IMG/VR virus record: IMGVR_UViG_3300001533_002237
Span: 30,309-94,308 of that record
Reading direction: 5' to 3' (one strand)
DNA: 64,000 bases
Source: a virus
The translations under genes were made by a program, and so were the position numbers. Below the pieces are notes generated by a model. That model searched no databases. It saw only the letters and a program-made list of their open reading frames with translations, and was not told the origin of the DNA. The first letter of the stretch is position 1, and each line of letters begins with the position of its first letter. Below are positions 38,439-58,660 of the stretch, in pieces.

Positions 38439-39225
38439 CTAATAATTTTTTTACTCTATCAATATGTTTTTTTGCCATTGGCTTACCACATGTATTTAAT
38501 TTAATAAACGCTTCAAATATAGTCTTTTTATTTGGATTAATCAAATATCCATAAAAAATTGAATAATTTTCAAATTTATTTTTATCCATTCCAGATAACT
38601 CAGAATAATAAAAACCATTATATTTAAAACGGTCTTCATAGAATTCAGCAATTGTTCTAAGTCTTTGTTTACCATCAAGAATTTTATAAAGTTTACCTTT
38701 AAAACTAAAAAGTCGTTGAATAAAAACAAATTTACCAATATCAATATTATCAAAAATACTAGCAATTAAATCATGTTTATCATCTAAACTCCAAACATGT
38801 TCACGTTGATATTCAACATCAAAATCAACACCACTATGATATACCATATTTAATAATGATGAAATAGATGAATTCAATTGAGTAATTCTATATGTTTCTT
38901 CTTTACAAAAAGATGTGTTTTTTCTAGTATCAATATATGGTAATAAATCATGCCATTCAATTATTTGTTGTTCATTTGCAGGTGGTTTATCTCTTTCCCT
39001 TTGAACATTAATATTTTCAATCCTATAATAAAGTCCATCTCTAAATATTTCACGAATATAAGTTTCTTTATGTGCACCATAACAAACTCGTTCACCAACA
39101 CTAAATTTTCTTGTTGGATTTAATGGTAATATACCATAATCAATATTTAATTCAATATCTCTAATTGAAGATTGAAGTAATGATTCTTGATGTGCAATAG
39201 AGTCAATTTTTTTTCGTTTTTTCAT
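38428..39225 (-). CDS. DUF262 (ParB/GmrS-N-like) protein
   Basis: 265 residues. The core motifs are FDVEYQREHVWSLDDKHDLI, then FVFIQ, ILDGKQRLRTI (the Asp-Gly-x-Gln-Arg signature) and FIKLNTCGKPM. DUF262 proteins share the ParB-like NTPase/nuclease fold; in GmrSD-type enzymes this domain drives NTP-dependent nuclease activity. Here it stands alone without the HNH DUF1524 half. An N-terminal ~85 residues is phage-specific. It may interfere with DNA modification defences or modify host DNA; this is inference. Confidence 0.7.
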   Translation of the reverse strand: MKKRKKIDSIAHQESLLQSSIRDIELNIDYGILPLNPTRKFSVGERVCYGAHKETYIREIFRDGLYYRIENINVQRERDKPPANEQQIIEWHDLLPYIDTRKNTSFCKEETYRITQLNSSISSLLNMVYHSGVDFDVEYQREHVWSLDDKHDLIASIFDNIDIGKFVFIQRLFSFKGKLYKILDGKQRLRTIAEFYEDRFKYNGFYYSELSGMDKNKFENYSIFYGYLINPNKKTIFEAFIKLNTCGKPMAKKHIDRVKKLLDEI

Positions 39226-43581: not shown

Positions 43582-43752
43582 ATGGGAATTACTAATGAAA
43601 ATGCAAAAGCATTCGAAGAAATGCATAAAGAAATGGAAGACACTACACCTGAAAATGTAGATGAAACTACTGATGAAGTAAATGAAGAAACTACTGATGA
43701 AGTAAGTGAAGAAACTACTGATAACTCTGAAGCTGATAAAACTATAAAATAA
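43582..43752 (+). CDS. Small acidic repeat protein
   Basis: 56 residues, net very negative, with a repeated E-T-T-D-E-V-x-E unit after a helical MGITNENAKAFEEMHKEME start. Its TAA overlaps the ATG of the vWA gene (TAATG), so the two are translationally coupled. Likely disordered; may be a binding partner or inhibitor of its neighbour. Confidence 0.6.
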   Translation: MGITNENAKAFEEMHKEMEDTTPENVDETTDEVNEETTDEVSEETTDNSEADKTIK

Positions 43753-44679
43753 TGGGATATTCAGCTTGGTCAGATGACGCATATGTAAATCTTACATCAA
43801 GTAAGAGTTATGCAAGTAAAAGTGCTGATGAAATTTTTTCAAATTCATTGAGCAAAGACATGACACCTATGAATCTTGGAATCAGAGAATCACGTGATAG
43901 TGATGCACACCCAACATCGTTGGCAATTATGGTATTCCTTGATAAAACTGGTAGTATGGGACATATTCCTGAAGCCATCGTAAAAAAAAAAACTCGGTGC
44001 ACTTATGAACACTATTATTGATAATGGTGTTGAACATCCTCAAATTCTTTTTGGAGCAATTGGTGACCATATCAGTATCAGTGACCAATCACCATTACAA
44101 GTAGGTCAATTCGAAAGTGGTACTGAAGAACTTGATAAATGGTTGACTCAAATTTATCTCGAAGGCTATGGTGGTGGTCAAAAAATGGAGTCTTATCTCC
44201 TTGCTTGGCTTGTGACTGGTCGTCATACAAGTATTGATTGTTTTGAAAAGCGTAATGAAAAAGGTTTTCTTTTCACAATTGGTGATGAAATGTCTTGGGA
44301 TAAATTAGGTGCTGATACTCTAAGAAATCTTCTTGGTTATCCACAAGGTGAAGAAGTAACCGATGTTCAACTTCTTGAAGAAGCACAAAAACTTTATAAT
44401 GTCTATCATATACATATTAATGAAGCATCTTATCGTAATGACCCAGAAGTTTTAGGTTATTGGAAAAAAATGCTTGGTGAGAGATTAATTGTTTTAGATG
44501 ATTATAATGCTGTTTGTGAAACAATAGTTACATTAATTGCTGTTCAACATGGTGTTGATATGATTGACATCACGAGCAAGTTTGATTCAAAAATCGCTGG
44601 TTATGTAACAACTGCATTAGCAACAGTTACTGCTGGTTCAATTGTATCTAATAATGATGATGGTGTGATTGAATTATAA
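43752..44679 (+). CDS. vWA-domain protein with a frame change at an A11 run
   Basis: The first part (43752-~43990) ends in a MIDAS motif, MVFLDKTGSMG (DxTxS), and runs into eleven A residues at 43982-43992. The zero frame then goes out of register and stops at 44021. Moving one base forward after the run continues as LGALMNTIIDNG and reads to 44679 (QILFGAIGDHI, EGYGGGQKMESYLLAW), completing a ~308-residue vWA fold. With ten A residues the gene would be intact. Either polymerase/ribosome slippage joins the parts or the run is miscounted. An in-frame ATG at 44005 could also make the C-terminal part alone. vWA domains bind partners through a metal ion. Confidence 0.75.
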
Positions 44680-44700
44680 AAGAACAATATTTTTAGATTT

Positions 44701-44735
44701 AAAAAGGAACTGATGAAAATTAGTTCCTTTTTTTG
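44701..44735 (+). terminator. Rho-independent terminator fused to a promoter
   Basis: AAAAAGGAACT / AGTTCCTTTTTTT stem-loop with T-run after the vWA gene; its last Ts form the TTG of the following TTGTAACA box. Confidence 0.85.
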
Positions 44736-44765
44736 TAACAAAAAAATAAATTTTTCGTATAATTG
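44733..44765 (+). promoter_or_regulatory. Early/middle-type promoter (TTGTAACA...TTCGTATAATTG)
   Basis: TTGTAACA (44733-44740), 13 bases, TTCGTATAATTG (44754-44765), 29 bp before ATG 44795. The clearest example of this class. Confidence 0.75.
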
Positions 44766-44794
44766 TAAAATTGTTTATTTAATAATAAAAAAAT

Positions 44795-45958
44795 ATGACA
44801 AAAGTATCAATAGTAATCGGAGCATTATATGGTGACGAAGGTAAAGGTTCTTTCGTTAATTATTTGTGTAGTCAAACAATAAAACCTTTAGTAATAAGAT
44901 TCAATGGTGGACATCAAGTTGGACATACAGTTGTTAATAATGACGGAACAAAACATGTATTTTCAAATTTTGGTTCAGGTACACTTCAAAACACACCTAC
45001 TTATTGGTCAGAATATTGTACTGTAAGTCCTGTTGGAATACAAAAAGAAGGTAGGATATTAAATGAATTAGGTATTGAACCTGAATTATATCTTAATGCT
45101 AATGCAATGGTTACAACACCATTTGATATATTACAAAATCACAAACTTGAAGCAAGTAATAATCATGGTAGTGTTGGTGTGGGTTTTGGTACAACAATTC
45201 AAAGAAATGAAGATAATTATCGTTTATATGTTCGTGATTTACAATATTCTAAAATCAGAGATGAAAAACTTAAATTAATAATAAATAATTATTATAATTT
45301 ACCTTTCAATCCTGCTTGTGCATATCAAAATAAAGAGACTAGAAAAATATATGATAATTTTATTGCAGCATGTGATGATTTGATTGGTAGATATGAAATA
45401 ATTAATGATTTAAAATCACATGGTTTATATAATCATGATATGATTTTTGAAGGTGCTCAAGGCATTATGCTTGATAAAAATTATGGATTCTTTCCTCATG
45501 TAACAAGAAGCAATACAACATCAAAAAATGCTTTGGAAATAATTAAAACAATTCCATTAAATGTTGATATAAATACATATTATATCACACGAGCATATCA
45601 AACTAGACATGGTAATGGATATATGACTAATGAAGGTTCAGACATTAGTTATATAAAAAACAACCCTAAAGAAACTAATGTTGAAGGTTTTCAGGGTGAA
45701 TTCAGAAAATCAATATTGGATTTAGATGTATTAAATTATGCTATTTCATGTGATAAATATCATAATCCAGATATGTTCTCAAAAAAGAAATTAGTTATTA
45801 CATGTCTTGACCAAGTACCTGAAAATATACCTATAACGGTTAATGGTGTTAAAGGTGTTGCAAATTATGAACAAATTTCTAGATTTTGCAAAATTAAACA
45901 CGTTTTTCCTGTATATTCTGATACAGGATTTAAATTTAATAATGATAAACAATTGTAA
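44795..45958 (+). CDS. Adenylosuccinate-synthetase (PurA)-like enzyme
   Basis: 387 residues, shorter than typical PurA (~430). The P-loop-like GALYGDEGKGSFVNYL keeps the catalytic Asp14, and NGGHQVGHTVV keeps the catalytic His44, though the usual GGxNAGHT has H-Q-V. Further motifs: GSVGVGFGTT, EGAQGIMLDKNYGFFPHVT and ITRAYQTRHGNG. PurA joins IMP and aspartate using GTP. The preserved GDEGKG argues against the phage PurZ type, which is reported to have lost this Asp. It may boost AMP/dATP supply for an AT-rich genome or act on an unusual nucleotide. Its own promoter and upstream terminator show separate control. Confidence 0.8.
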   Translation: MTKVSIVIGALYGDEGKGSFVNYLCSQTIKPLVIRFNGGHQVGHTVVNNDGTKHVFSNFGSGTLQNTPTYWSEYCTVSPVGIQKEGRILNELGIEPELYLNANAMVTTPFDILQNHKLEASNNHGSVGVGFGTTIQRNEDNYRLYVRDLQYSKIRDEKLKLIINNYYNLPFNPACAYQNKETRKIYDNFIAACDDLIGRYEIINDLKSHGLYNHDMIFEGAQGIMLDKNYGFFPHVTRSNTTSKNALEIIKTIPLNVDINTYYITRAYQTRHGNGYMTNEGSDISYIKNNPKETNVEGFQGEFRKSILDLDVLNYAISCDKYHNPDMFSKKKLVITCLDQVPENIPITVNGVKGVANYEQISRFCKIKHVFPVYSDTGFKFNNDKQL

Positions 45959-45981
45959 TTTAAAAAATTATTATATATTTG
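45953..45981 (+). promoter_or_regulatory. Bacteroidota-type promoter
   Basis: TTG (45953-45955), 18 bases, TATATTTG (45974-45981), 12 bp before the ligase ATG; the -33 box lies in the last codons of the PurA-like gene. Confidence 0.6.
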
Positions 45982-45992
45982 TAATAAAAAAT

Positions 45993-47390
45993 ATGAAAAT
46001 AAAAGAAATTTTTGACGAAATAGCTGTTGAGTCAGGCACTAATGAAAAAATGAATATACTGTCGAAGTATAAAGACAATAAACTTTTAAAACGTGTATTG
46101 TATTTAGCTAACTCAAAACGAGTTAAGTTCTATATTAAACAAATACCTACTTATACTGCTGATGTTGAACGTCCAGAATCATTAGAATGGGCACTTGATG
46201 GGTTAGTTGCATTATCAACTCGTCAATTTACTGGTCATAAAGCAATTAATTGGTTGAAAGTATTACTAAGTAGCATATCTGCTGGTGATGCATATGTATT
46301 AGAACGTATCATTGAAAAAGATTTGAGAATTGGTATGGGTACTCGAAATATTAATAAAGTATTTCCTGATTTAATTGAAAAAACACCATATATGGGAGCT
46401 AAATCATATACTGAGAAATTAGTAAGAGATTTATTTAAAAATGGTAAAGCAGTTTATAGTGATATTAAAATGGATGGTAGGTATCAAAATGCAATTATTA
46501 ATGAAGGTGATGTTGAATTAATTTCTCGACAAGGTGAACCTACACCAGTAGGGGACGCATTGTTTTTAAACGAATTAAAGGATTTTCCTAATGTTGTATT
46601 AAATGGTGAATTAACTATTGATGGCTTAGATAGATATAGTGCAAATGGTATTATTGCATCAATAGTTGACATTGAAGGTAAACGTGATACTCGTAGTGCT
46701 GATGAAACCTTAATAAAAATCAGTGGTTTTGAAAAAAAACATGGTCATTATTATTCATATATGGATAAAATTGTTTATACTGTATGGGATATGATTTATC
46801 TTGATGAATATTTTAATCCTGATAAAGTTAAATCAGAAAGACAGTATAAATTTCGTAGATATGAATTACGCAATTTGATTAATACTTGGAAATTTAAAAT
46901 GATTCGTTCTGTTGAAAGTAAAATAGTTAATTCTTATGAAGAAGCAGTTCAACATTTTCAAGAAGCATTAAATAGAGGATTAGAAGGTACGATTATTAAA
47001 TCAATGGATGGTCAATGGAAAGACACTAAACCAAACTGGCAAGTTAAGATGAAACTTGAGATAAATGTTGATTTAAAAATAACTGGTTTTAATTATGGTA
47101 CTGGTAAAAATTCTAATGTAGTATCGTCATTAAGTTGTGAGTCATCATGTGGTCAAATCAAAACAAGACCAACAGGTATTGATGAGGATATGATGCAACA
47201 CATTACTGATAATCAAGACAATTTATTAGGCACTATATTAGAAGTAAAATGTAGTGGTTTATCAAAAGATGCGAATAATAATTATTCATTATTACATCCA
47301 GTATTTAAAGTTCTTCGTGATGATAAATTAGAAGCCAATAGTTTGGAAGAAATCATTGAAATTGAAAATGCTGCTAAAAAATTATCATAA
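45993..47390 (+). CDS. ATP-dependent DNA ligase
   Basis: 465 residues from ATG 45993 (the longer frame upstream lies inside the PurA-like gene and its promoter). N-terminal helical DNA-binding part (FTGHKAINWLKVLL, DLRIGMGTRNINKVFP), then the nucleotidyltransferase core: motif I YSDIKMDGRY with the Lys near 158, motif III-like VVLNGELTIDG, VVWDMI-like VYTVWDMIY, motif IV GLEGTIIKS, motif V WQVKMKLE, and an OB-fold C-terminus. It seals nicks during phage replication, like T4 gp30. Confidence 0.9.
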   Translation: MKIKEIFDEIAVESGTNEKMNILSKYKDNKLLKRVLYLANSKRVKFYIKQIPTYTADVERPESLEWALDGLVALSTRQFTGHKAINWLKVLLSSISAGDAYVLERIIEKDLRIGMGTRNINKVFPDLIEKTPYMGAKSYTEKLVRDLFKNGKAVYSDIKMDGRYQNAIINEGDVELISRQGEPTPVGDALFLNELKDFPNVVLNGELTIDGLDRYSANGIIASIVDIEGKRDTRSADETLIKISGFEKKHGHYYSYMDKIVYTVWDMIYLDEYFNPDKVKSERQYKFRRYELRNLINTWKFKMIRSVESKIVNSYEEAVQHFQEALNRGLEGTIIKSMDGQWKDTKPNWQVKMKLEINVDLKITGFNYGTGKNSNVVSSLSCESSCGQIKTRPTGIDEDMMQHITDNQDNLLGTILEVKCSGLSKDANNNYSLLHPVFKVLRDDKLEANSLEEIIEIENAAKKLS

Positions 47391-47393
47391 ATT

Positions 47394-47783
47394 TTGAATT
47401 TAAAATTAAATGTCTTGATAAAAAAAGAAAATATAATAATAGATAAGAATGATTTTAAAATTATTACTACCACAGGTAGCGGACCGGGAGGTCAACATAA
47501 AAACCGTGTGCAAACTGCTGTTGTAATAACTCATATACCAACAGGTTTGCAAGAAAAATGCGAAGATACTAGAAGCCAACATCGCAATAAAGAAATTGCT
47601 ATGGATAGACTTCTTAAAGGAATTGCTGAACTAAAAGAAGCAAAAAAACATGAGAAGCAAAATGATAGTCGCAAGGAACAAATAAGTGGTAAAGCAGTTC
47701 GAACATATAATTATCCACGAAATCAAGTAACTGACCATAGAACTGGAAAGAAAGCGAATCTTGATAAAATAATGAACGGTTGA
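47394..47783 (+). CDS. Stand-alone release-factor domain with GGQ motif
   Basis: 129 residues from TTG 47394 (another TTG at 47415; no in-frame ATG near). ITTTGSGPGGQHKNRVQTAV contains GGQ, the peptidyl-tRNA hydrolysis motif, and RTYNYPRNQVTDHRTG is the RF1/RF2-type domain-3 signature. The codon-recognition domain of true RFs is absent. The unusual basic C-terminal tail of ArfB is also absent. Such domains can rescue stalled ribosomes. It lies four bases after the ligase gene and within the RNA-repair/tRNA region. Confidence 0.8.
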   Translation: MNLKLNVLIKKENIIIDKNDFKIITTTGSGPGGQHKNRVQTAVVITHIPTGLQEKCEDTRSQHRNKEIAMDRLLKGIAELKEAKKHEKQNDSRKEQISGKAVRTYNYPRNQVTDHRTGKKANLDKIMNG

Positions 47784-47808
47784 ATTAAATAAAGATTTTT
47801 ATATTAAA

Positions 47809-47904
47809 ATGCTTCAACGTGAAGACACTAAATTATTTGCTGTTAAAGCAGGTAAATTTGATGACGGAAAAGAATTTGTTACATTAACTATTGAAGAAGA
47901 ATAA
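47809..47904 (+). CDS. Very small protein
   Basis: 31 residues, ATG 47809; REDTKLFAVKAGKFDDGKEF then an acidic end. Its stop overlaps the next ATG (TAATG), which supports translation. Function unknown. Confidence 0.45.
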   Translation: MLQREDTKLFAVKAGKFDDGKEFVTLTIEEE

Positions 47905-48185
47905 TGAAACTTAAAGGTCAATATAATCAAAAATATATTATTGATAAGGTTAATAAAGAACTTGTTGTTAATGTAGTATTAAAACAGGTTGATGATTTAA
48001 TTAAACCCAAACAAAATGTTTGGTATGGTGTTGCTACTGTTGATGATAAAATCATTAACCATAAAGATTTACCTTATTGTACCAATGCTGAATACATGGC
48101 AGAAACCATCGCATTAGAAATTATCGAAGCATGGAAAAAAAGAGCAAAAAAAGAAAATAAAGTTTTTAGACTAAAAAGAAAATAA
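47904..48185 (+). CDS. Hypothetical small basic protein
   Basis: 93 residues with beta strands (YIIDKVNKELVVNVVLKQV, WYGVATVDD) and a Lys/Arg-rich C-terminal helix (AWKKRAKKENKVFRLKRK) that might bind RNA. Overlaps the previous stop by one base. No family recognised. Confidence 0.55.
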   Translation: MKLKGQYNQKYIIDKVNKELVVNVVLKQVDDLIKPKQNVWYGVATVDDKIINHKDLPYCTNAEYMAETIALEIIEAWKKRAKKENKVFRLKRK

Positions 48186-48187
48186 TA

Positions 48188-48250
48188 ATGGAAGACCTTA
48201 ATACTAAATTATTTAACGAAATTGTTCTCAGTAAAAAAATGATAAATTAA
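48188..48250 (+). CDS. Possible 20-residue peptide
   Basis: ATG 48188, two bases after the previous stop, to TAA 48250. Too short to judge; listed because of its tight spacing. Confidence 0.25.
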   Translation: MEDLNTKLFNEIVLSKKMIN

Positions 48251-48264
48251 CTAACAATTTAATT

Positions 48265-48639
48265 ATGTTAATTGTTGATTTAATCAAGTCTGAAATTCAA
48301 ACTGATAGATTTAAATTTATAACAAAAAAATATTATGATGGTTGTTGTGCTTATACATATAGTAGTGTGAGTAAACGCATATTAAAATTTAATCCTGATA
48401 AAACTGATAAAGTTGTTTCATATGTTAGAGTTATGATACGATGTGCTTTTGCTAATTGGATTGGAAGCAATTGGGAAATGTTAGGATATAAAAAAAGAAA
48501 GAAAATGAAACCAGCAGAATTTTATGAAATTTTAGAAAAATTTGTTTATGAACAACAAAGATGGAAATCACTTCAAGTAGGTGACATTGTTTATGATGTT
48601 CAATGTCGAGGACGGATAATGATTATCATAAAGCAATAA
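48265..48639 (+). CDS. Hypothetical protein, possibly frame-shifted into 48603-48755
   Basis: 124 residues; helical, basic (MLGYKKRKKMKPAEFY). Near its end LQVGDIVYDVQCRG looks like the start of a small beta-barrel, but it then stops within a few residues. The continuation of such a barrel is found in the next gene's frame, so the two may be one gene with a shift around 48610. Confidence 0.5.
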   Translation: MLIVDLIKSEIQTDRFKFITKKYYDGCCAYTYSSVSKRILKFNPDKTDKVVSYVRVMIRCAFANWIGSNWEMLGYKKRKKMKPAEFYEILEKFVYEQQRWKSLQVGDIVYDVQCRGRIMIIIKQ

Positions 48640-48755
48640 TTAAAGAAATAAATATTGATGAAAGATTTATTATTGTCGATGATTTATTAGTAACTCCTGT
48701 TCGAGAAAAAAAATATTATTCATTTATAACTCAAGAAGAATTTGAAAAATTATAG
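48603..48755 (+). CDS. Small overlapping ORF completing the 48265 protein
   Basis: 50 residues from ATG 48603: HKAIIKEINIDERFIIVDDLL then SFITQEEFEKL, a beta-strand-rich sequence that would logically follow GDIVYD of the upstream gene. It overlaps that gene by 37 bp in the -1 frame. Either an independent coupled ORF or the second half of a shifted gene. Confidence 0.4.
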   Translation: MSRTDNDYHKAIIKEINIDERFIIVDDLLVTPVREKKYYSFITQEEFEKL

Positions 48756-48757
48756 TT

Positions 48758-49168
48758 ATGAAAGTAAAAGCATTAAGATATAAAGATACAAAGGAATTTG
48801 TTTATATTGACCATGAACATGGTGGTGAAGAACCAATGATTTTCACATCAACTTTACCAAAACTACAACCAGAAACTGCTGATTTGGAAGTTATGAAAGA
48901 ATTATTTGAAAATAATGATTATTATGAAGGACTTGAATTAGATTTTGATAAAGTAGAACTAGTTGAACTTGATATAATTGAAAGTGGTGAAGTTGGTGCT
49001 GATATTAGAAATAAACTCAGTCCACCCAAAAATCTTATTGCATTACTTGAAGTTTTCTTTGAAACTAAAGTGGGTTATACTGATGAAAGAAGAAAATTAG
49101 TTAATATTATAAAGGAAGAAATGAAACAAGCTAAAAAAAATATTGATTATATTGCAGATTTGTTGTAA
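48758..49168 (+). CDS. Hypothetical acidic protein
   Basis: 136 residues, mixed fold, acidic centre (DFDKVELVELDIIES) and a helical C-terminus. It ends at the promoter of the tRNA transcript. No motif recognised. Confidence 0.55.
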   Translation: MKVKALRYKDTKEFVYIDHEHGGEEPMIFTSTLPKLQPETADLEVMKELFENNDYYEGLELDFDKVELVELDIIESGEVGADIRNKLSPPKNLIALLEVFFETKVGYTDERRKLVNIIKEEMKQAKKNIDYIADLL

Positions 49169-49184
49169 CTTTTTATTATATTTG
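49163..49184 (+). promoter_or_regulatory. Promoter of the noncoding tRNA transcript
   Basis: TTGTAACT at 49163-49170 followed by TATATTTG at 49177-49184, then TCGTAT; the elements of both promoter classes are present though compressed. It lies 19 bp before the first tRNA. Confidence 0.5.
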
Positions 49185-49202
49185 TCGTATGACAATATAA
49201 AT

Positions 49203-49307
49203 GCGTGGGTGACTGAATGGTTAAGGTACTGTATTTGATGACAGGTTTAATTGAAGGAAAGTGCACTAGTATGTTAATTAATGGGGGTTCGAATCCCTCC
49301 CTGCGCT
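49203..49307 (+). tRNA. Class II-type tRNA (Ser-like, probable UGA anticodon)
   Basis: The acceptor GCGTGGG (49203-49209) pairs with CCTGCGC (49300-49306), with two G-U pairs. The D arm is ACT/GGT around GAATGGTTAA, and the T arm is GGGGG-TTCGAAT-CCCTC (49283-49299). The anticodon arm is CTGT/ACAG around an 8-base loop containing TTTGAT, which would give UGA. A 6-bp variable arm (TTAATT/AATTAA) carries a 23-nt loop, long even for class II. Discriminator T; CCA is not encoded. The loop size and discriminator make the isotype uncertain. Confidence 0.65.
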
Positions 49308-49513
49308 CAACAAAAATATTGCTAGTGTTTATAGTTTGTGATACGTTTTCGAAGTTACACTTGATAAACTTAATTAAAAAGTATTTCTCTTTTAAAAGTT
49401 GTTTTAGATAGAAACAAGTATGGTGGAGTTTTAGAGAGAATTTTACCACATCGCAAAGGTATAAATCTATGAAGAAGGGTGGGAGTTAACAGCAATAAGA
49501 CTCTCACCGATAT
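49308..49513 (+). other. Noncoding spacer with hairpins
   Basis: No convincing gene on either strand. It contains a nested hairpin based on GTTTAT/ATAAAC (about 49326-49368), a weak GTGG/CCAC pairing (about 49423-49449), and a 9-bp stem GGTGGGAGT / ACTCTCACC (49478-49508) just before the tRNA-Leu-like gene. A diverged copy of the AGAAACAA motif lies at 49406-49417. Confidence 0.5.
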
Positions 49514-49697
49514 GATTGGATGACGAAATTGGTAGACGCTATGTGTGAAAGTAGAAGTTGACTATCGGAAACACATAATGCCGTTGGAAACAGAAACAAA
49601 GGGGGAAAGTCTTTAAATCAACTTAGTGAGACGAATACCAGTGTAAACAGAAACAAGCACGGAAAGTCCAATACAGGTTCGAGTCCTGTTCCAATCA
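49514..49697 (+). tRNA. tRNA-Leu-like gene with ~97 extra nucleotides
   Basis: The acceptor stem is perfect: GATTGGA (49514-49520) with TCCAATC (49690-49696), discriminator A. The D arm AAATTGGTAGACG is Leu-like; the T arm is ACAGG-TTCGAGT-CCTGT (49673-49689). A 5-bp anticodon-position stem (49541-49545 with 49572-49576) encloses 26 nt instead of 7, with an inner GTAG/CTAT hairpin. Between it and the T arm lie 96 nt instead of ~15. The total is 184 nt against about 87 for tRNA-Leu. No anticodon can be read directly, so an intervening sequence or a tRNA mimic is likely. Confidence 0.6.
49588..49668 (+). repeat. Direct repeat AAACAGAAACAA-N4-GGAAAGTC
   Basis: Two exact copies, 49588-49611 and 49645-49668, 57 bp apart, inside the tRNA-Leu-like gene. 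GGAAAGT also recurs at 49256 and GGAAAGTC at 49788 in the same transcript. Confidence 0.8.
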
Positions 49698-49812
49698 CGA
49701 ATCCTAACACGGTGGCTACGTGTTGAAATGTCGGATAACGTGTCTGATAGGTAAGGTCTGAATGCCAAAAAGAAGGAACGACAGGAAGGAAAGTCTTCGC
49801 AAACCTAATTTT
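49698..49812 (+). ncRNA. Structured 3' part of the tRNA transcript
   Basis: A 6-bp stem AACACG/CGTGTT with a 7-nt loop (49706-49724) sits inside a CCTA...TAGG pairing. A T-arm-like GGTCTGAATGCC follows, then another GGAAAGTC (49788). No ORF. It could be a diverged tRNA-like element or a functional RNA; nothing identifies it further. Confidence 0.4.
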
Positions 49813-49843
49813 GCCAGTTTCATGAATATAAAACTGGTATTTT
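49813..49843 (+). terminator. Rho-independent terminator of the tRNA transcript
   Basis: CCAGTTT (49814-49820) pairs with AAACTGG (49831-49837), followed by TATTTTT. It closes a ~650-nt noncoding transcript. Confidence 0.85.
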
Positions 49844-49872
49844 TAACAAATATTAACTAAAATTTAAATAAA

Positions 49873-50733
49873 ATGGGGTATTTACACATTTCAAATCTCT
49901 ATAAAGAGCAATCGATATTGCTTTTCAAAAAATGCTATGCTATGGAAAAAATACACGGGACTTCTGCACACGTTAAATGGAAATTCGAAACAAAAGAAGT
50001 GATTTTTTTTACTGGCGAAAATCATCCATTATTTCTTACTTTATTTGACAAAGACTTTTTAATTAAAAAGTTTGAAGAAATATTTCCTGACCAAGATGCT
50101 GTTATTTTTGGTGAACACTATGGTGGAAAATGTCAAGGTATGTCAAGTACTTATGGAAAAGAAAGTAAATTTATTGGTTTTGATGTGAAAGTCGGTGATG
50201 TTTGGCTTAATGTTCCAAATGCCGAAGACGTATGTAACCAATTTAATATTGAATTTGTTTCTTATGAAAAAATAGATGTTAGTTCACCTAAACTTATTGA
50301 AGAAAGAGATAAACCAAGTGTTCAAGCTGTTCGTAATGGTATAACTGAACCAAAAAAACGTGAAGGGGTGGTATTACGTCCATTAATTGAACTTAGAAAA
50401 AACAATGGTGAGCGTGTAATCGCTAAATTTAAACCTGATGAACAAATGGAAACCAAATCCAAAAGAGAAGTTAGTGATGAACAATTAAAAGTTTTAAGCG
50501 AAGCAAATGAAGTTGCAGAAGAATGGGTAACTAACTTAAGATTAGAACACGTACTTCAAAAATTCCCTGCTGATGTAAATATGGAAAGCATGGGCGATAT
50601 TATTAAAGCAATGATTGCCGATGTGTATCGTGAAGGCAAAGATGAAATTATTGAAAGTAAACCAGTTGAAAAAGCAATTGGTAAAGCAACTGTTAAAATT
50701 TTTAAAGCTAAATTACAATCTAAATTAAAATAA
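49873..50733 (+). CDS. Rnl2-like RNA ligase
   Basis: 286 residues. Motif I is MEKIHGTSAHV with the nucleophile Lys26 (Lys-x-His-Gly); motif III-like FIGFDVKVGD, motif IV REGVVLRP and motif V VIAKFKPDE follow in order. K-x-H-G is found in RNA ligases that repair nicked or cut RNA rather than in DNA ligases. A ~100-residue helical C-terminus follows. It directly follows the tRNA transcript, so tRNA is the probable substrate. Confidence 0.85.
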   Translation: MGYLHISNLYKEQSILLFKKCYAMEKIHGTSAHVKWKFETKEVIFFTGENHPLFLTLFDKDFLIKKFEEIFPDQDAVIFGEHYGGKCQGMSSTYGKESKFIGFDVKVGDVWLNVPNAEDVCNQFNIEFVSYEKIDVSSPKLIEERDKPSVQAVRNGITEPKKREGVVLRPLIELRKNNGERVIAKFKPDEQMETKSKREVSDEQLKVLSEANEVAEEWVTNLRLEHVLQKFPADVNMESMGDIIKAMIADVYREGKDEIIESKPVEKAIGKATVKIFKAKLQSKLK

Positions 50734-50735
50734 TC

Positions 50736-50933
50736 ATGGAAGACATAAAAAAATTAAAAAAAATAGTGACGAGAAGTAATATTGTGTATTTCAATGGTCT
50801 AACAGTTAAGGATAGAAATTTTAAACCAACAATAGATTATCTTAATTTAAACCAAGACGGTCTTGAAGATAAAGTTCGAATTGATTTCTGGGATGAAGAG
50901 AATAAAATATTGAGTTTAAAAAGTAATTATTAA
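50736..50933 (+). CDS. Hypothetical small protein
   Basis: 65 residues, basic N-terminal helix (EDIKKLKKIVTR), acidic end. Two bases after the RNA ligase gene. Unknown function; may be a ligase partner by position. Confidence 0.45.
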   Translation: MEDIKKLKKIVTRSNIVYFNGLTVKDRNFKPTIDYLNLNQDGLEDKVRIDFWDEENKILSLKSNY

Positions 50934-50937
50934 TGTT

Positions 50938-51237
50938 ATGTTTATAAAAATTGAAATCGAAGATTGTAGTGGTTGTCCTTTTATGGAAAGTAAAAGGGTA
51001 TATACTGCTGATAGTTTTGAAATGCCTTTCGAATGGAAGTGTACTAAAGCAAATAAGGTAATTGCTGGTTTTGTTGAACATAACGACAAGATACCAGTAC
51101 CTAAATGGTGTCCATGTAGAATTGAAGATATAAAATCAAATATTAATGATTGTGAACATAAGAATATTGAAAAAGTAGGTCCTTTCAAAGACATATGGTG
51201 TAAAGATTGTGAAACTGTTGTTAAAAGTGGTATGTAA
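50938..51237 (+). CDS. Cys-rich zinc-binding protein
   Basis: 99 residues with cysteines in four groups: DCSGCPF, WKCTK, KWCPCRI and DCEHKN...WCKDC. Two zinc sites are plausible. Similar Cys-rich small proteins are common in phages but unassigned. Its stop overlaps the next start (TAATGG). Confidence 0.55.
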   Translation: MFIKIEIEDCSGCPFMESKRVYTADSFEMPFEWKCTKANKVIAGFVEHNDKIPVPKWCPCRIEDIKSNINDCEHKNIEKVGPFKDIWCKDCETVVKSGM

Positions 51238-51422
51238 TGGGACGATATTCACGTAAAGACATGATTGAATTTGCTAAGTTTGTTAAATGTCATCAATCGG
51301 CAAGAAATGTTGAAAATGCTTATGATGATTATTTAAAAGGTGTTAGAATCATCACAATTAATACTGATAAAGAAGTTATTAAACAATATAAAAAAATAAA
51401 AAATGAGAGACGAACTAGGTGA
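51237..51422 (+). CDS. Hypothetical small basic protein
   Basis: 61 residues, Lys/Arg-rich at both ends. The last 20 bp overlap the Thg1 gene. Function unknown. Confidence 0.45.
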   Translation: MGRYSRKDMIEFAKFVKCHQSARNVENAYDDYLKGVRIITINTDKEVIKQYKKIKNERRTR

Positions 51423-52191
51423 CCGCATGAAGCGGAATTATGAAAATCGAACTCGTATCTATTTACCGAGAAGAACATATACGATTGTGCGTGTCGATGG
51501 TAAATGTTTTGGAAATTTTACTAAAAATTTAATACGTCCTTTTGATATGGGTTTGATTGAAGACATGAATGAAACTGCAAAATATCTTTGTCAATATATT
51601 CAAGGTGCTAAGATTGGTTTTGTACAGTCTGATGAAATCAGTATATTAATGACTGATTTTGATACTATTACAACAGATGCTTGGTTTGATGGTAATATTC
51701 AAAAAATTGTTAGTGTTGCTGCTAGTATGGCTACGGCTAAATTTAATCAGTTAAGACAGGCAAGATATATTAAGGAAAAATTTGATAAAGGAATAACTAA
51801 CGTAACGTACAGATGGATGGAAGTATTATCAGAACAAAAACTTGCTGAATTCGATGCAAGAACATTTACGATTCCTTCTAAAACAGAAGTAATGAATTAT
51901 TTTATCTGGAGGCAAAATGATTGTGTTAGAAACAGTATTTCAAGTGTTGCTCAAAGTCTTTATCATAATAAAAAACTTGAAGGTAAAAACATGAGTATGC
52001 AACAAGAAATGATTTTTCAAAAAGGTATTAATTGGAATGACTATGAACCAATATTTAAACGTGGTAGGTTTGTTTGTAAAGAAAAATATGACAAAGATGG
52101 AGTAGAAAGAACACGATGGATTATTCGTGACTGTCCAACATTTAGTCAAAATCAAGAATTTCTGGACTCATTTACTCCTGATTTATCTTAA
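51403..52191 (+). CDS. Thg1-family 3'-5' RNA polymerase (tRNA-His guanylyltransferase-like)
   Basis: 262 residues. YTIVRVDGKCFGNFTK (about 26-41) supplies the first metal-binding Asp, and IGFVQSDEISILMTDF (about 70-85) the Ser-Asp-Glu pair, as in Thg1. FDARTFTIPSKTEVMNYFIWRQNDCVRNSI matches the conserved WRQxDCxxN region. Thg1 adds G-1 to tRNA-His; Thg1-like proteins of bacteria and phages restore missing 5' nucleotides of tRNAs using the 3' strand as template. No tRNA-His gene is visible, so repair is more likely than G-1 addition. Confidence 0.9.
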   Translation: MRDELGDRMKRNYENRTRIYLPRRTYTIVRVDGKCFGNFTKNLIRPFDMGLIEDMNETAKYLCQYIQGAKIGFVQSDEISILMTDFDTITTDAWFDGNIQKIVSVAASMATAKFNQLRQARYIKEKFDKGITNVTYRWMEVLSEQKLAEFDARTFTIPSKTEVMNYFIWRQNDCVRNSISSVAQSLYHNKKLEGKNMSMQQEMIFQKGINWNDYEPIFKRGRFVCKEKYDKDGVERTRWIIRDCPTFSQNQEFLDSFTPDLS

Positions 52192-52208
52192 TATTGAAGG
52201 CAAAGCGT

Positions 52209-52505
52209 ATGTATAAAGTTGTAACAGAAAATCAAGAATCATTGGGACTTAGAAAAAATCCTAACATTATGAAATTTTTTATTAATAAATGGATGCATGA
52301 ACCCAATCCCAATGAAAGTAAACAAGATTCTGGTGGAATTTGGTGTTGTGAAAAACTAAGTGCTGCTCGTGGTTTAAAAAAATATTTTGAAAAGAAATAT
52401 GGTAAAGCTAAAATATTTGAATGTGAAACAGGTATTGTATTGTTTCAAAATAATTATCGAATAAAAACAGATAAAGTTAAATTAATAAAAGAAATAATCT
52501 ATTAA
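52209..52505 (+). CDS. Hypothetical protein
   Basis: 98 residues from ATG 52209 (an upstream TTG at 52194 is possible). Contains WMHEPNPNE, a GGIWCCEKLSAARGLKKYFEKKYG helix and a short strand end. No family recognised. It is close behind Thg1 (17 bp), probably co-transcribed. Confidence 0.55.
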   Translation: MYKVVTENQESLGLRKNPNIMKFFINKWMHEPNPNESKQDSGGIWCCEKLSAARGLKKYFEKKYGKAKIFECETGIVLFQNNYRIKTDKVKLIKEIIY

Positions 52506-52591
52506 TCAAATTTGGAAAAATAATTTATTATCACTAACTTCCCCCAAAAATCATATATGAAAGAATTAAAAACTATTTAATAGATATAACT

Positions 52592-52636
52592 TGTAATTCA
52601 GTTGTCTTTTTACTGAATAATTGTATTTGTAATAAA
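52592..52636 (+). promoter_or_regulatory. Hairpin and promoter-like box before the split nuclease
   Basis: ATTCAGT/ACTGAAT form a 7-bp stem (about 52596-52618), followed by TGTATTTG, near the -7 consensus, and the nuclease ATG 52643. The remaining ~100 bp back to 52506 are A/T-rich without a gene. Confidence 0.3.
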
Positions 52637-52642
52637 TATAAA

Positions 52643-53604
52643 ATGAAAAAAATATTAAAAGAAAATGCTATTATCAGGTTAAATAATCATAATCCAAATA
52701 TAATATTGATTGGAGAATATGTAGGTTTAACCAATAATACTAATTTTAAATGTAAAAAATGTGGTAGTATTAGATTTACATCATTTTATAAATTATTAAA
52801 TAGTACTAGAAAATTAGGTTGTATTAAATGTGAAAAAAGGAAAAAAAATAAAAAGGAAAAAAGTAGAACTAAATCACATAAACAATACTTATTGGAAATT
52901 TATAATATTTGGGGAATTCTGTTAGAATTATTGGTCAATATAATGGTACTTATAAAAAAATTGAAGTTAAGTGTAATGTATGTAATAACATTTGGAATCC
53001 TGAAGCCAAATCATTATTAGCTAAACATGGATGTCCTAAGTGTGGTCATTTGAAGAATAGAATATCAACAGTAAAAAAACAAGATGAATATATTGCTGAA
53101 GTTAACATCAAACATAATAATAGAATTACTGTTATTGGAAAATATGTGTCAGGAAATAATAAGATATTATTAAAATGTAATAAATGTCAATATGAATGGT
53201 CATCTGTTGCACGTAATATAATTAAAGGTAGAGGTTGTCCTAAATGTAGATTAAATAAAGGCGAGACAATAATAAATAATATTTTAGAAGAAATTAATGT
53301 CAATTTTAAACCACAATATGTTATTAAAAATTTAAAAACACCACATAATGGTATTCCAATATTTGATTTTGCAATATTTAATGAAAATAATGAATTAAAA
53401 ACCATTATTGAATACGATGGGATTCAGTATTTTAAACCAATAAAAAATTGGGGTGGTAAAAAAAGATTTGTTGAACAACAAAAGATTGATAAATTTAAAA
53501 ATGAGTATTGTATTAATCATAACATTAAAATGATAAGAATAAAATATACTGAATTAGAAAATATTAATAATAATTATATTAAACATAAAATATATGGAAA
53601 ATAA
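52643..53604 (+). pseudogene. Zinc-ribbon/Vsr-like homing endonuclease, frame-shifted
   Basis: Frame 1 (52643-~52909) encodes a zinc ribbon (NFKCKKCGSI...GCIKCEKR) and runs out of register after EIYN. Frame 2 (from ~52909) continues with two more ribbons (VKCNVCN...GCPKCG and LLKCNKCQ...GCPKCR) and a Vsr-like nuclease (FDFAIFNENNE, IIEYDGIQYF, KNEYCINHNIKMIRIKY). Each ribbon is preceded by an I-x-(G/K)-x-Y strand, so the shift breaks a regular three-unit array. A -1 shift, or one missing base near TTTGGGG, explains it. Probably a decaying mobile gene. Confidence 0.7.
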
Positions 53605-53660
53605 ATTAGAATTAAGAACATTTTATTACGTGAATTAATTAAAGATAAAAAATTAGCATA

Positions 53661-54230
53661 ATGAACATACGTAAAATATTAAATATTAAAACAAAAAAAG
53701 ATAATGATATAATTAAGAAGGATATTGAAAAAATATTGTCTGGTTGTGATGTTATCGCTAATGTTGAATACAAAGAACAAAAAGAAAATCAATATGCTCA
53801 TGATGGACAGTGTCCAATGTGTAGAAATAAAACAAATATTGTTAATAAAATAAAAGATGTTAATGGTAAAATAAATATTGATGGTGATTTTAAATTTGGT
53901 TTTGGTTCAATTAATGGTGGTTTAGATATTAATACCGATGAAGTAAATCATTGTAATAACTGTGGTAATGAATGGAAGAAATTTAAAACCAAATATGTTA
54001 CTGAAACAGATATAATTAGAGTTGCATTAAATTATTTGGCTGATATTTACGATAACCCTGAAAAAACTAAAAATCATTATTGGAAACATGATACTATTAA
54101 AGTGTTTGATAATTGTTATGCTGAATCAATAAAAATACTAATAAAAAAACATTATCATTTTTTACATGATACCATTAACATCTTAACACTAAAGAAACTT
54201 AGAGAAAATTTTAAATCAATATTTGATTAA
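53661..54230 (+). CDS. Zinc-ribbon hypothetical protein
   Basis: 189 residues. A CPMC (about 52-55) and CNNC (about 98-101) pair bracket a beta-rich Gly segment (DFKFGFGSINGG), forming a zinc ribbon. The C-terminal half is helical with many His/Tyr. No function inferred. Confidence 0.6.
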   Translation: MNIRKILNIKTKKDNDIIKKDIEKILSGCDVIANVEYKEQKENQYAHDGQCPMCRNKTNIVNKIKDVNGKINIDGDFKFGFGSINGGLDINTDEVNHCNNCGNEWKKFKTKYVTETDIIRVALNYLADIYDNPEKTKNHYWKHDTIKVFDNCYAESIKILIKKHYHFLHDTINILTLKKLRENFKSIFD

Positions 54231-54232
54231 TA

Positions 54233-54766
54233 ATGGCAGTTAAAGGAAAAAGAAATGTTAAAATACCTAAAATAACAACTGCTGAAATGGAAGTTAGCAT
54301 CGCTAAATATTTTGGAATTAGAAAACATATTATCGTTCCAAATCTTTCATGGGGTTTTGATGGAATACATGAATGTGACCTTTTTTTCATTAGAAAAGGT
54401 CGATATGCATTTGAAGTTGAAATAAAAAGAACTAAAGCTGACCTTCTCGCTGATTTTAAAAAATATCATAATCACGTTGATAGAAAAAATAGAATTGTTC
54501 AATTATATTATGCAATACCTAAAGAATTATTAAGTACTTGTGAAGAACATATTCCAGAACAATTTGGAATTCTTATCGTTGAAAAATACGAATCATATGG
54601 AAAATATTATGACCATACTTCCATGTATCGAGAAGCAAAACGAAAAACTGGTGCTAAACGATTAACTGAAAATGAAGTATTAAAGGCAGCTAGACTTGGT
54701 TGTATGAGAATATGGAGTCTTAAAGAAAAATTAAATAAACAAAAACGTAAAAATGACAAAACATGA
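54233..54766 (+). CDS. MmcB-like PD-(D/E)XK nuclease
   Basis: 177 residues. The core HECDLFFIRKGRYAFEVEIKRTKADLLAD has Asp followed by Glu-x-Glu-x-Lys, a PD-(D/E)XK site, and a conserved RIVQLYYAIPKEL strand after it. This arrangement is like MmcB-type DNA-repair proteins. The N-terminal helix TTAEMEVSIAKYF and basic tail may bind DNA. Overlaps the next gene by 14 bp. Confidence 0.65.
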   Translation: MAVKGKRNVKIPKITTAEMEVSIAKYFGIRKHIIVPNLSWGFDGIHECDLFFIRKGRYAFEVEIKRTKADLLADFKKYHNHVDRKNRIVQLYYAIPKELLSTCEEHIPEQFGILIVEKYESYGKYYDHTSMYREAKRKTGAKRLTENEVLKAARLGCMRIWSLKEKLNKQKRKNDKT

Positions 54767-54947
54767 ATTTTGTAAAGATATTGTCGAACTAATTGATAAT
54801 ATGAATTACATTGGTGAAACTGATAAAGAAAAACAAATTGAAGCAGTTAAAGCATTAATTTCACCACTTAAACCTAAGGATTTAAAAAAATTTGTTAAAT
54901 GGGGACAACCACATCAACAATCAACAATTGATGAATGTTGGGATTAG
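54753..54947 (+). CDS. Hypothetical small protein
   Basis: 64 residues, helical, ending just at the next promoter. Starts within the end of the nuclease gene. Function unknown. Confidence 0.5.
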   Translation: MTKHEFCKDIVELIDNMNYIGETDKEKQIEAVKALISPLKPKDLKKFVKWGQPHQQSTIDECWD

Positions 54948-54978
54948 TTGTAACATAATTTTATTATTTCCGTATTAA
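54948..54978 (+). promoter_or_regulatory. Early/middle-type promoter (TTGTAACA...TTCCGTATTA)
   Basis: TTGTAACA (54948-54955) and TTCCGTATTAA near 54968-54977; diverged second box, 34 bp before ATG 55012. Confidence 0.5.
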
Positions 54979-55011
54979 AAATAAAAAGAATTAATAAAAA
55001 ACAAATATTTT

Positions 55012-56013
55012 ATGAAAATTACTGAAGATGAAAATGATTATGAATTAGATTTAATTAATGAAGAAATTAAAGAGGAAATTTATGAAGCCCTAGATAAAAG
55101 AGAACCAGTTAAAAATGATGGGTATTGTCAATGGTTAAAGGAAGCTAATAATGTATATCATCCTGTTGGTAAAATTGAATTAATGCAGGAATTACCGGGT
55201 GGTAAATATGATATTTTATGGTCAAATGAAAGAAGTCAATATTATTTCATAAAAACAAATGTTGTTTTAGATGAGTTATTAGAGTTACCGAATCCAACTT
55301 TTAATTCAATAATTGGTGATATTAAGTATTTTTGGAAAAATAAAAGTTTATTTGATAAATATAAATATGCATATAAAAGAGGGATATTGTTGTTTGGTGA
55401 ACCGGGATGTGGAAAAACATCAATAACTGCTCAACTTACAGACTATATTACAACTAAAATGAATGGTATTGTTTTTTCAATAAATAATGGAAGAATGTTA
55501 GATTTTTATGCTAGTGCAGTTCCTAATCTTTTAAAAAGAATACAACCTGATGTACCTGTTTTAGTATTAATTGAAGACCTTGATGGTTTATTAAGAAATA
55601 CTGAAAATGAAACACTTTTATTAAATATTCTTGATGGTTTAAATCAAACGAATAATGTAGTTTTTATTGGCAATACTAATTATCCTGAGAATCTTAAAGA
55701 TAGAATATTAAATAGACCATCGAGATTTGATAAACGATACTATATCGGTCCGCCTAATGCTGCAGTGAGAAAATTTTATTTTGAAAATAAAATTACTCCT
55801 GATGATTTGAAAAAAACTAATATTAATGAACTCGTTGAAAAAAGTGAAGGTCTTACTTTAGCACATCTTGGTGAATTGATTAAAGGAATTTATATTTTTA
55901 ATAAAACAGTTAATGAAGTGGTTGATGATTTAAGAGATATGAAAAATTTTATATCAAGTAGTAAATTTGATTCAAAAGGAACTTCAGTGGGTTTTTCAAA
56001 TAAAAAGAAATAA
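55012..56013 (+). CDS. AAA+ ATPase
   Basis: 333 residues. Walker A GEPGCGKTS near 128-136, Walker B VLVLIEDLDG near 184-192, sensor 1 FIGNTNYPE, and an arginine-finger region RPSRFDKRY. The order and the LLNILDGLNQ segment are typical of the BCS1/ClpX-like classic AAA clade. The N-terminal ~100 residues are specific. It probably remodels a replication or host complex; substrate unknown. Begins a three-gene run ending in the helicase. Confidence 0.85.
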   Translation: MKITEDENDYELDLINEEIKEEIYEALDKREPVKNDGYCQWLKEANNVYHPVGKIELMQELPGGKYDILWSNERSQYYFIKTNVVLDELLELPNPTFNSIIGDIKYFWKNKSLFDKYKYAYKRGILLFGEPGCGKTSITAQLTDYITTKMNGIVFSINNGRMLDFYASAVPNLLKRIQPDVPVLVLIEDLDGLLRNTENETLLLNILDGLNQTNNVVFIGNTNYPENLKDRILNRPSRFDKRYYIGPPNAAVRKFYFENKITPDDLKKTNINELVEKSEGLTLAHLGELIKGIYIFNKTVNEVVDDLRDMKNFISSSKFDSKGTSVGFSNKKK

Positions 56014-58618: not shown

Positions 58619-58642
58619 TTTGAAAATTTTTTCATATCTTTG
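58619..58642 (+). promoter_or_regulatory. Bacteroidota -7 box before the methyltransferase
   Basis: TATCTTTG (58635-58642) fits TAnnTTTG, 18 bp before ATG 58661; TTTG at 58619 is only 12 bases upstream, so the -33 box is uncertain. Confidence 0.5.
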
Positions 58643-58660
58643 TACAAATTTGAAAAAGTT

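What the first reader, a model, noticed from the sequence alone, without database searches (positions are those of the whole stretch)
47394..52191. RNA-repair and translation island: GGQ domain, tRNA transcript, RNA ligase, Thg1
Within 5 kb lie a stand-alone release-factor domain, a noncoding transcript with two tRNA-like genes, an Rnl2-like RNA ligase (K-x-H-G), Cys-rich small proteins and a Thg1 3'-5' polymerase. A HAD phosphatase of RNA-repair type is at 37947. Ligase, 5'-end rebuilding and ribosome rescue together would counter host anticodon or tRNA nucleases. The families are established; that they act as one system is inference.
Basis: partly seen in the sequence, partly recalled or inferred. 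Interest (0 to 1): 0.8.

Follow-up and report, generated by a model that had tools for sequence, protein, structure and literature searches.

The report
Phage noncoding RNA with anticodon-less tRNA-like domains
Just upstream of an RNA ligase gene, phages that probably infect Bacteroidota carry a previously uncatalogued structured RNA whose tRNA-shaped domains lack a working anticodon and often carry a self-pairing loop, so the "RNA-repair island" is built around an RNA and not only around enzymes.

Summary
The two "tRNA-like genes" are real too and are the main result. They are not tRNAs. They are the tRNA-like modules (T1, T2) of a conserved noncoding locus that ends in a covarying structured RNA, element B (49698-49843), with a terminator. 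Element B occurs in 21 distinct phage contigs; in 20 a tRNA-like module ends 1 nt (N73) before B's almost invariant CGA. Twelve contigs carry a further conserved RNA (A); in the nine examined a boxA-like GTTCTTTGAA lies 10-18 nt upstream of it. The modules keep a 7-bp acceptor stem and a T-arm, but the anticodon arm is a short hairpin, often with a 4-nt loop, or is replaced by a divergent insert. T1 variable arms carry an 8-nt palindrome (11 of 12 self-complementary, outer pair covarying), suggesting dimers. Rfam and ARAGORN show no relative beyond the generic tRNA model. Ligase, RNA and Thg1 are neighbours in nine genomes; GGQ is in two only; HAD is 10 kb away on the other strand. A joint anti-nuclease repair system is therefore only partly supported. 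The RNA's function is inferred, not shown.

The parts
49177..49184 (+). Possible Bacteroidota-type -7 promoter element (TATATTTG) 19 nt upstream of T1; weak
   Evidence: Sequence reading; the -33 spacing is not ideal, not tested
49203..49307 (+). tRNA-like module T1: 7-bp acceptor (GCGTGGG/CCTGCGC), T-arm, discriminator U, degenerate anticodon hairpin, long variable region with palindrome AGTGCACT
   Evidence: Rfam tRNA 34 bits; table of tRNA-like modules; palindrome; T1-type homologues in 12 other contigs
49308..49513 (+). Spacer that sits where element A sits in L147 (T1-A-T2-B); not alignable to A by eye
   Evidence: inference from order only
49514..49697 (+). tRNA-like module T2: Leu-like D-arm (GACGAAATTGGTAGACGC), acceptor GATTGGA/TCCAATC, A73, about 100-nt insert replacing the anticodon/variable region, with an internal 35-nt repeat
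49698..49843 (+). Element B: structured RNA (H1 AACACG/CGTGTT, H2 GTCG/CGAC, optional hairpin H3, terminator hairpin H4), conserved core GGAAAG....CG..AAACCTAA
   Evidence: nhmmer; covariation; cmsearch 159 bits
49814..49844 (+). Intrinsic terminator at the end of B (CCAGTTT ... AAACTGG, TATTTTT)
   Evidence: Helix 4: all 7 pairs have a change on both sides across 15 sequences
49873..50733 (+). Rnl2-like RNA ligase (motif I EKIHGTS, motif IV EGVVLR, motif V AKFK)
   Evidence: Pfam; PHROG 548; alignments; AlphaFold pLDDT 88; Foldseek best hit T4 Rnl2 2hvr
51403..52191 (+). Thg1-like protein (TLP) 3'-5' polymerase
   Evidence: Pfam; closest solved sequence 4kgk (Thg1-like protein), E 4.8e-64
48758..49168 (+). 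o136: conserved protein of unknown function usually encoded just upstream of the RNA (motif GADIRNKL.P..NL)
   Evidence: no Pfam/PHROG hit; weak fold, no significant PDB match
50938..51237 (+). Small Cys-rich protein with homologues in five related contigs
   Evidence: PHROG 29585 unknown function
47394..47783 (+). Stand-alone RF1-type GGQ domain; only the window and L002 have it
   Evidence: Pfam; closest to RF1 domain 3; distribution

Best explanation
The core of the island is a phage noncoding-RNA locus built like a miniature rRNA operon: (boxA-like leader) - RNA A - tRNA-like module(s) T1/T2 - RNA B - terminator, with modules lost or reordered between phages. The tRNA-like modules are derived from tRNAs but have lost decoding: they keep the acceptor stem, the T-arm and usually a GG-type D-loop, so host RNase P and perhaps RNase Z can be expected to cut at or next to them. 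The anticodon arm has become a structural hairpin or a large insert. T1 additionally carries an 8-nt palindrome in its variable region that should let two RNA molecules kiss. Most likely the product is a stable, processed, probably dimerising structural RNA, made or maintained together with the Rnl2-like ligase and the Thg1-like 5'-end polymerase encoded downstream. Shown here: conservation, base-pair covariation of B, tRNA-like ends, no consistent anticodon, palindrome symmetry, synteny. Inferred: transcription, processing, dimerisation, any link to the ligase and Thg1, and the biological role.
For: B covaries: 18 of 24 pairs with changes on both sides, 91% of cells paired against 30-46% when slid, 0/500 shuffles reach the score (12 of 24 on the unfitted alignment). 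A scan of all IMG/VR contigs with a B pattern, blind to the proteins, gave 16 hits, 15 of them B at this locus. The CM found 6 more in ligase loci. A tRNA-like module ends 1 nt before B in 20 of 21. boxA-like GTTCTTTGAA 10-18 nt before A in 9 of 9 examined. ARAGORN of 17 modules; with introns allowed 3 of 17 against 4.3 in shuffled controls. Unconstrained folds of L005, L006, L014 and L104 give a 4-nt loop in the anticodon arm. T1 palindrome: 11 of 12 self-complementary over 8 nt, outer pair A-U/C-G/G-C, shuffle P 0.0004; series CGTGCACG - CGTGCATG - CATGCATG in identical flanks.
Against: No transcript data. In the window B ends only 30 nt before the ligase start codon, so a cis-regulatory leader is possible. 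A is not recognisable in the window, and one relative (L103) has B without a tRNA-like module. Some relatives have B with Thg1 but no ligase found nearby (L012, L014, L018) or with ligase but no Thg1 in the stretch held (L103, L105, L147), so neither enzyme is strictly tied to the RNA. The palindrome may be inherited rather than independently maintained; the shuffle test ignores relatedness. T2-type modules mostly lack it. Covariation of A is weak. The boxA reading rests on a gammaproteobacterial consensus.
Confidence: 0.55

Rival explanations
1. One reading: ligase, Thg1 and GGQ factor (plus HAD phosphatase) together repair tRNAs cut by host nucleases and rescue stalled ribosomes during infection; the tRNA-like genes are replacement tRNAs.
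For: Ligase is Rnl2-like with intact motifs, Thg1 is TLP-like; both are neighbours in nine genomes. TLPs are known to rebuild truncated tRNA 5' ends (own knowledge). A stand-alone release factor with an RNA ligase is known as RtcB2-PrfH (PMC9223846).
Against: GGQ only in the window and L002. HAD gene 10 kb away on the other strand. No AAA_33 kinase or RtcB in the 94-kb record, which may be incomplete. The tRNA-like modules have no consistent anticodon.
Confidence: 0.25
2. The stretch is a cis-acting leader of the repair operon: the tRNA-like part mimics tRNA and binds one of the repair enzymes, and B with its terminator hairpin attenuates transcription into the ligase and Thg1 genes (autoregulation, as with the tRNA mimic in the E. 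coli thrS leader).
For: In the window, L004, L024 and L089, B ends about 15-30 nt upstream of the ligase start codon. B ends in an intrinsic terminator.
Against: In L005, L006, L011 and L147 there are 0.7-2 kb, with other ORFs where read, between B and the ligase; L012, L014 and L018 have no ligase nearby; L002, L006 and L077 have a second strong terminator after B. A gene-specific leader would not be expected to tolerate this. The boxA-like leader suggests a stable RNA.
Confidence: 0.15
3. The modules are intron-containing tRNAs that are cut by an endonuclease and sealed by the neighbouring RNA ligase.
For: Insert size and the neighbouring ligase suggest it; T2 keeps a Leu-like D-arm and A73.
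Confidence: 0.03
4. The modules are decaying tRNA genes of no function that happen to precede B.
For: Loss of anticodons and variable length (91-183 nt) look like decay; one relative lacks the module (L103).
Against: Acceptor stems stay paired while their sequence differs between phages, T-arms stay nearly always intact, the spacing to B is exactly 1 nt in 20 of 21, and the T1 palindrome keeps its symmetry. Decay should break these first.
Confidence: 0.05

Closest known systems
GOLLD and ROOL RNAs (PMC12286853)
   Same: Structured RNAs of phages, often near tRNA islands; tRNAs sometimes sit inside the GOLLD linker; kissing loops join molecules; protein partners unknown
   Different: No Rfam match here; smaller (A about 190-260, B about 150 nt); tRNA-like modules lack an anticodon; located beside ligase and Thg1 genes; cage formation untested
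tRNA (Leu-like for T2; T1 has a GCG/CGC acceptor and U73)
   Same: 7-bp acceptor stem, D-loop with GG in most, T-arm GGTTCGANTCC
   Different: No usable anticodon, 91-183 nt, no encoded CCA, followed after one nucleotide by an almost invariant CGA of another RNA
tmRNA
   Same: tRNA-like part without an anticodon, joined to other structured domains
   Different: No supported tag reading frame; the tRNA-like part lies upstream of the structured part and occurs twice in some phages
Bacterial Y RNA (YrlA) with Ro60/Rsr and Rtc repair operons
   Same: tRNA-mimicking RNA encoded next to RNA-repair enzymes
   Different: No Ro60 (TROVE) gene in the record; has an acceptor stem; the ligase is Rnl2-like, not RtcB
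RtcB2-PrfH ribosome-rescue operon (PMC9223846)
   Same: RNA ligase and stand-alone release-factor protein near each other
   Different: Ligase of another family; the release-factor gene is present in only two of the phages
HIV-1 DIS kissing loop
   Same: Palindromic GUGCAC flanked by purines; L002 carries AGGTGCACA, the nonamer of the HIV-1 Mal DIS loop (own knowledge)
   Different: Here inside a tRNA-like variable arm; dimerisation not tested

Membership tests
tRNA | Acceptor stem and T-arm | tested here: met
   7 of 7 acceptor pairs and a paired T stem in 16 modules; more; L147 T1 has one mismatch and L077 T2 an imperfect T-arm
tRNA | Anticodon arm with 7-nt loop and readable anticodon | tested here: not met
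   ARAGORN 0 of 17; with introns 3 of 17, shuffled 4.3; 4-nt loops in several T1 folds
tmRNA | tRNA-like ends enclosing a resume codon and tag ORF | tested here: not met
   Rfam finds only tRNA; ARAGORN at a relaxed threshold gives inconsistent tags and nothing in the window
GOLLD / ROOL | Match to the Rfam models | tested here: not met
   No hit in the window or seven relatives, nor at E up to 5 in the region
GOLLD / ROOL | Homo-oligomer assembly through kissing loops | not testable with these tools
   Palindrome symmetry suggests dimers only
Y RNA / Ro60 | Ro60 (TROVE) partner gene | tested here: not met
   No TROVE match in the 94-kb record, a possible fragment
Rnl2-type RNA ligase | KxxG motif I, motifs IV/V and nucleotidyltransferase fold | tested here: met
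   (best PDB match T4 Rnl2, E 2.9e-13)
Rnl2-type RNA ligase | Seals nicks in double-stranded RNA | not testable with these tools
   No biochemistry
Thg1-like protein | Thg1 catalytic domain | tested here: met
   Pfam Thg1 3.5e-26; 4kgk 4.8e-64 with the VR(V/I)DG and QSDEISIL regions kept
RtcB2-PrfH system | RtcB gene beside prfH | tested here: not met
   No RtcB in the record
T4-type tRNA repair (Pnkp + Rnl1) | Polynucleotide kinase-phosphatase | tested here: inconclusive
   No AAA_33 kinase in the record, but the record may be a fragment; HAD_SAK_2 phosphatase present
BoxA-led antiterminated RNA operon | boxA in the leader bound by NusB/NusE | tested here: inconclusive
   GTTCTTTGAA before A in 9 of 9 examined, close to GYTCTTTAANA (PMC5725501); no Bacteroidota consensus checked; absent before window T1

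The most novel reading that the evidence does not exclude
A phage-specific noncoding operon in which tRNA-derived, anticodon-less modules are used as structural and dimerisation domains (and perhaps as aminoacylated, non-decoding acceptors: T2 keeps A73 and a Leu-like D-arm, T1 keeps GCG/CGC and U73), forming an RNA assembly served by its own RNA ligase and 3'-5' polymerase. I know of no system with this composition.
Probability: 0.3. Interest if true: 0.9.

Novelty: new variant of a known kind. Interest (0 to 1): 0.72.

Why it matters
Phage RNA ligases and Thg1 proteins are usually read as tRNA-repair enzymes without a known natural substrate. A conserved structured RNA with tRNA-like domains at the same locus gives a concrete candidate substrate or partner and makes the question testable. 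It may also add to the short list of natural RNAs that assemble through kissing loops, and it shows a tRNA-like fold kept after loss of the anticodon.

Tried and rejected
Repeat motif AGAAACAAR..GGAAAGTC as a mobile or intron signal: a viral-contig scan gave 7 contigs that share no other sign of this locus in the output; judged chance and not examined further. Intron-containing tRNAs: no more ARAGORN calls than shuffled middles. tmRNA: inconsistent tags. Ro60/Y RNA: no TROVE gene. B in bacterial genomes: an exact-pattern scan of GTDB gave 0, although one B was later found in a contig binned as a Bacteroidota MAG (L092). DNA similarity of the L006 locus in phage and plasmid collections: 22 phage records with short weak matches, mostly in the tRNA T-arm, and no plasmid. 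Fold of o136: low confidence, no significant match. The first CM of B with an automatic structure had only 5 pairs and was replaced. More distant ligase loci: no tRNA-like module within 3 kb upstream in 64. L083 is a chance pattern hit with no B or tRNA-like sequence around it.
Full report
Setting. The window is bases 30309-94308 of a 94,308-base virus record, possibly a fragment. The DNA ligase gene's nearest named relatives are Cellulophaga phages, and one related contig is binned as a Bacteroidota MAG, so a Bacteroidota host is likely but not proven. The region 44000-56000 has no near DNA match among deposited phages.

RF-1 domain 47394-47783, RNA ligase 49873-50733, Thg1 51403-52191 and HAD_SAK_2 37947-38438 are real. 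The GGQ protein resembles domain 3 of RF1. The ligase has intact KIHG, EGVVLR and AKFK motifs; its predicted fold (pLDDT 88) best matches T4 Rnl2. Thg1 is closest to the Thg1-like protein 4kgk. GGQ recurs only in L002, and HAD_SAK_2 lies beside a GmrSD_N-like gene far from the island.

The noncoding stretch. Rfam calls one tRNA at 49203-49307 (34 bits); ARAGORN calls none. The stretch after the second tRNA-like element, 49698-49843, turned out to be the most conserved piece: an nhmmer profile found it upstream of Thg1 in many contigs. An independent scan of IMG/VR with a DNA pattern from its 3' core found 16 contigs; 15 are this element at this locus and one (L083) looks like chance. A covariance model found six more in ligase loci. 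In all I count 21 distinct copies: window, L002, L004, L005, L006, L007, L010, L011, L012, L014 (with near-identical contigs), L017, L018, L024, L077, L089, L092, L103, L104, L105, L106, L147.

Element B is an RNA. On a plain MAFFT alignment of 11 copies with a structure proposed by hand, 12 of 24 pairs have changes on both sides and no shuffle reaches the covariation score. With 15 copies aligned to the model it is 18 of 24 pairs, 91% of cells paired, against 30-46% when the partner strand is slid (this alignment leans towards the structure). One pair of helix H2 shows C-G, U-A, G-C and A-U. The last helix is an intrinsic terminator.

tRNA-like modules. In 20 of 21 copies a tRNA-like module ends exactly one nucleotide (N73) before B's almost invariant CGA. 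The exception is L103. A search for acceptor plus T-arm found 16 modules with 7/7 acceptor pairs; more were added later. Two types occur. T1 (mostly GCG...CGC, U73) has a short anticodon hairpin, with a 4-nt loop in the unconstrained folds of L005 (GGAA), L006 (GAGA), L014 (CAAA) and L104 (GGGA), and a long variable arm. T2 (mostly GATTGGA/TCCAATC, A73) has a Leu-like D-arm in the best-preserved copies and a large divergent insert. ARAGORN recognises none of 17 modules; with introns allowed it, against a mean of 4.3 when the middle is shuffled. They are therefore not intron-containing tRNAs as far as this program can tell.

Palindrome. Twelve of 13 T1 modules carry an [AG]TGCA[CT] core in the variable region; 11 of the 12 extend to a self-complementary 8-mer, counting one with a G-U pair. 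The outer pair is A-U, C-G or G-C (11 of 12 paired, shuffled mean 5.2, P 0.0004, relatedness not corrected). L106, L004 and L089 have CGTGCACG, CGTGCATG and CATGCATG in the same flanks, the steps expected of a compensatory change through G-U. A first, cruder test over all 17 modules gave 11 with an 8-nt palindrome against 4.9 expected. This fits a kissing-loop dimer; it has not been shown.

Element A and boxA. Nine contigs were aligned for a further conserved RNA (A) upstream; it is also visible in L092, L104 and L147. It has an 8-bp closing helix that hardly varies and only modest covariation elsewhere. A GTTCTTTGAA lies 10-18 nt before A in all nine examined, close to the boxA consensus GYTCTTTAANA (PMC5725501). 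The orders seen are T1-A-T2-B (L147), A-T1-T2-B (L007, L077, L104), A-T1-B, A-T2-B, T1-B, T2-B and B alone. In the window the order is T1, a 206-nt spacer that I could not align to A, T2, B. The likeness to an rRNA operon (boxA, RNA, tRNAs, RNA, terminator) is my reading.

Neighbours. Gene order VWA - adenylosuccinate synthetase - DNA ligase - o93 - o124 - o136 - RNA locus - RNA ligase - o61 - Thg1 is largely kept. Ligase and Thg1 both accompany the RNA in nine genomes; other contigs end too soon or lack one of the two nearby (see best explanation, evidence against). Sixty-four more distant ligase loci have no tRNA-like module within 3 kb upstream and at most one has Thg1 in the stretch held.

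How it may work. Step 1, transcription with antitermination: inferred from boxA-like sites and terminators. Step 2, RNase P (and perhaps RNase Z) processing at the tRNA-like modules: inferred from intact acceptor and T-arm. Step 3, pairing of two molecules through the palindrome: inferred from symmetry. Step 4, the ligase and Thg1 repair or complete this RNA or its fragments: inferred from synteny only. The main rivals are a pure tRNA-repair system next to an unrelated RNA, and a cis-acting leader with a tRNA mimic.

Novelty. No Rfam family other than the generic tRNA model matches the window or seven relatives, and literature searches in the held library found no description; these searches are not exhaustive. 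The nearest known kind is the GOLLD/ROOL group (PMC12286853).

Noticed in passing
window 43752-44679: VWA-domain-like gene split into two frames at a run of A (near 43990); both halves have homologues in relatives, so an assembly indel or a slippage site is possible
   Followed up: no
window 44795-45958: Short adenylosuccinate synthetase relative (387 aa) that keeps the GDEGKG aspartate; PurZ of Z-genome phages usually lacks it (own knowledge), so it does not by itself indicate a Z genome
   Followed up: partly
window 48758-49168: o136, a conserved protein of unknown function (GADIRNKL.P..NL) usually just upstream of the RNA locus; candidate RNA partner
   Followed up: partly
window 49577-49668: 35-nt direct repeat inside T2 (77% identical) whose GGAAAGTC also occurs in the core of B at 49788; L105 T2 has a similar GGGAAAGTT. 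Unexplained
   Followed up: partly
window 38428-39225 (minus): GmrSD_N-like protein directly beside the HAD_SAK_2 gene
   Followed up: no
window 52643-53604: Two overlapping frames of a CxxC-repeat protein with an endonuclease-like C-terminus, possibly one frameshifted gene
   Followed up: no
window 58640-60400: Eco57I-like DNA methylase with a TaqI_C specificity domain
   Followed up: no
L092 9180-9310: B with T2, ligase and Thg1 in a contig binned as a Bacteroidota MAG, probably a phage contig; supports the host guess
   Followed up: partly
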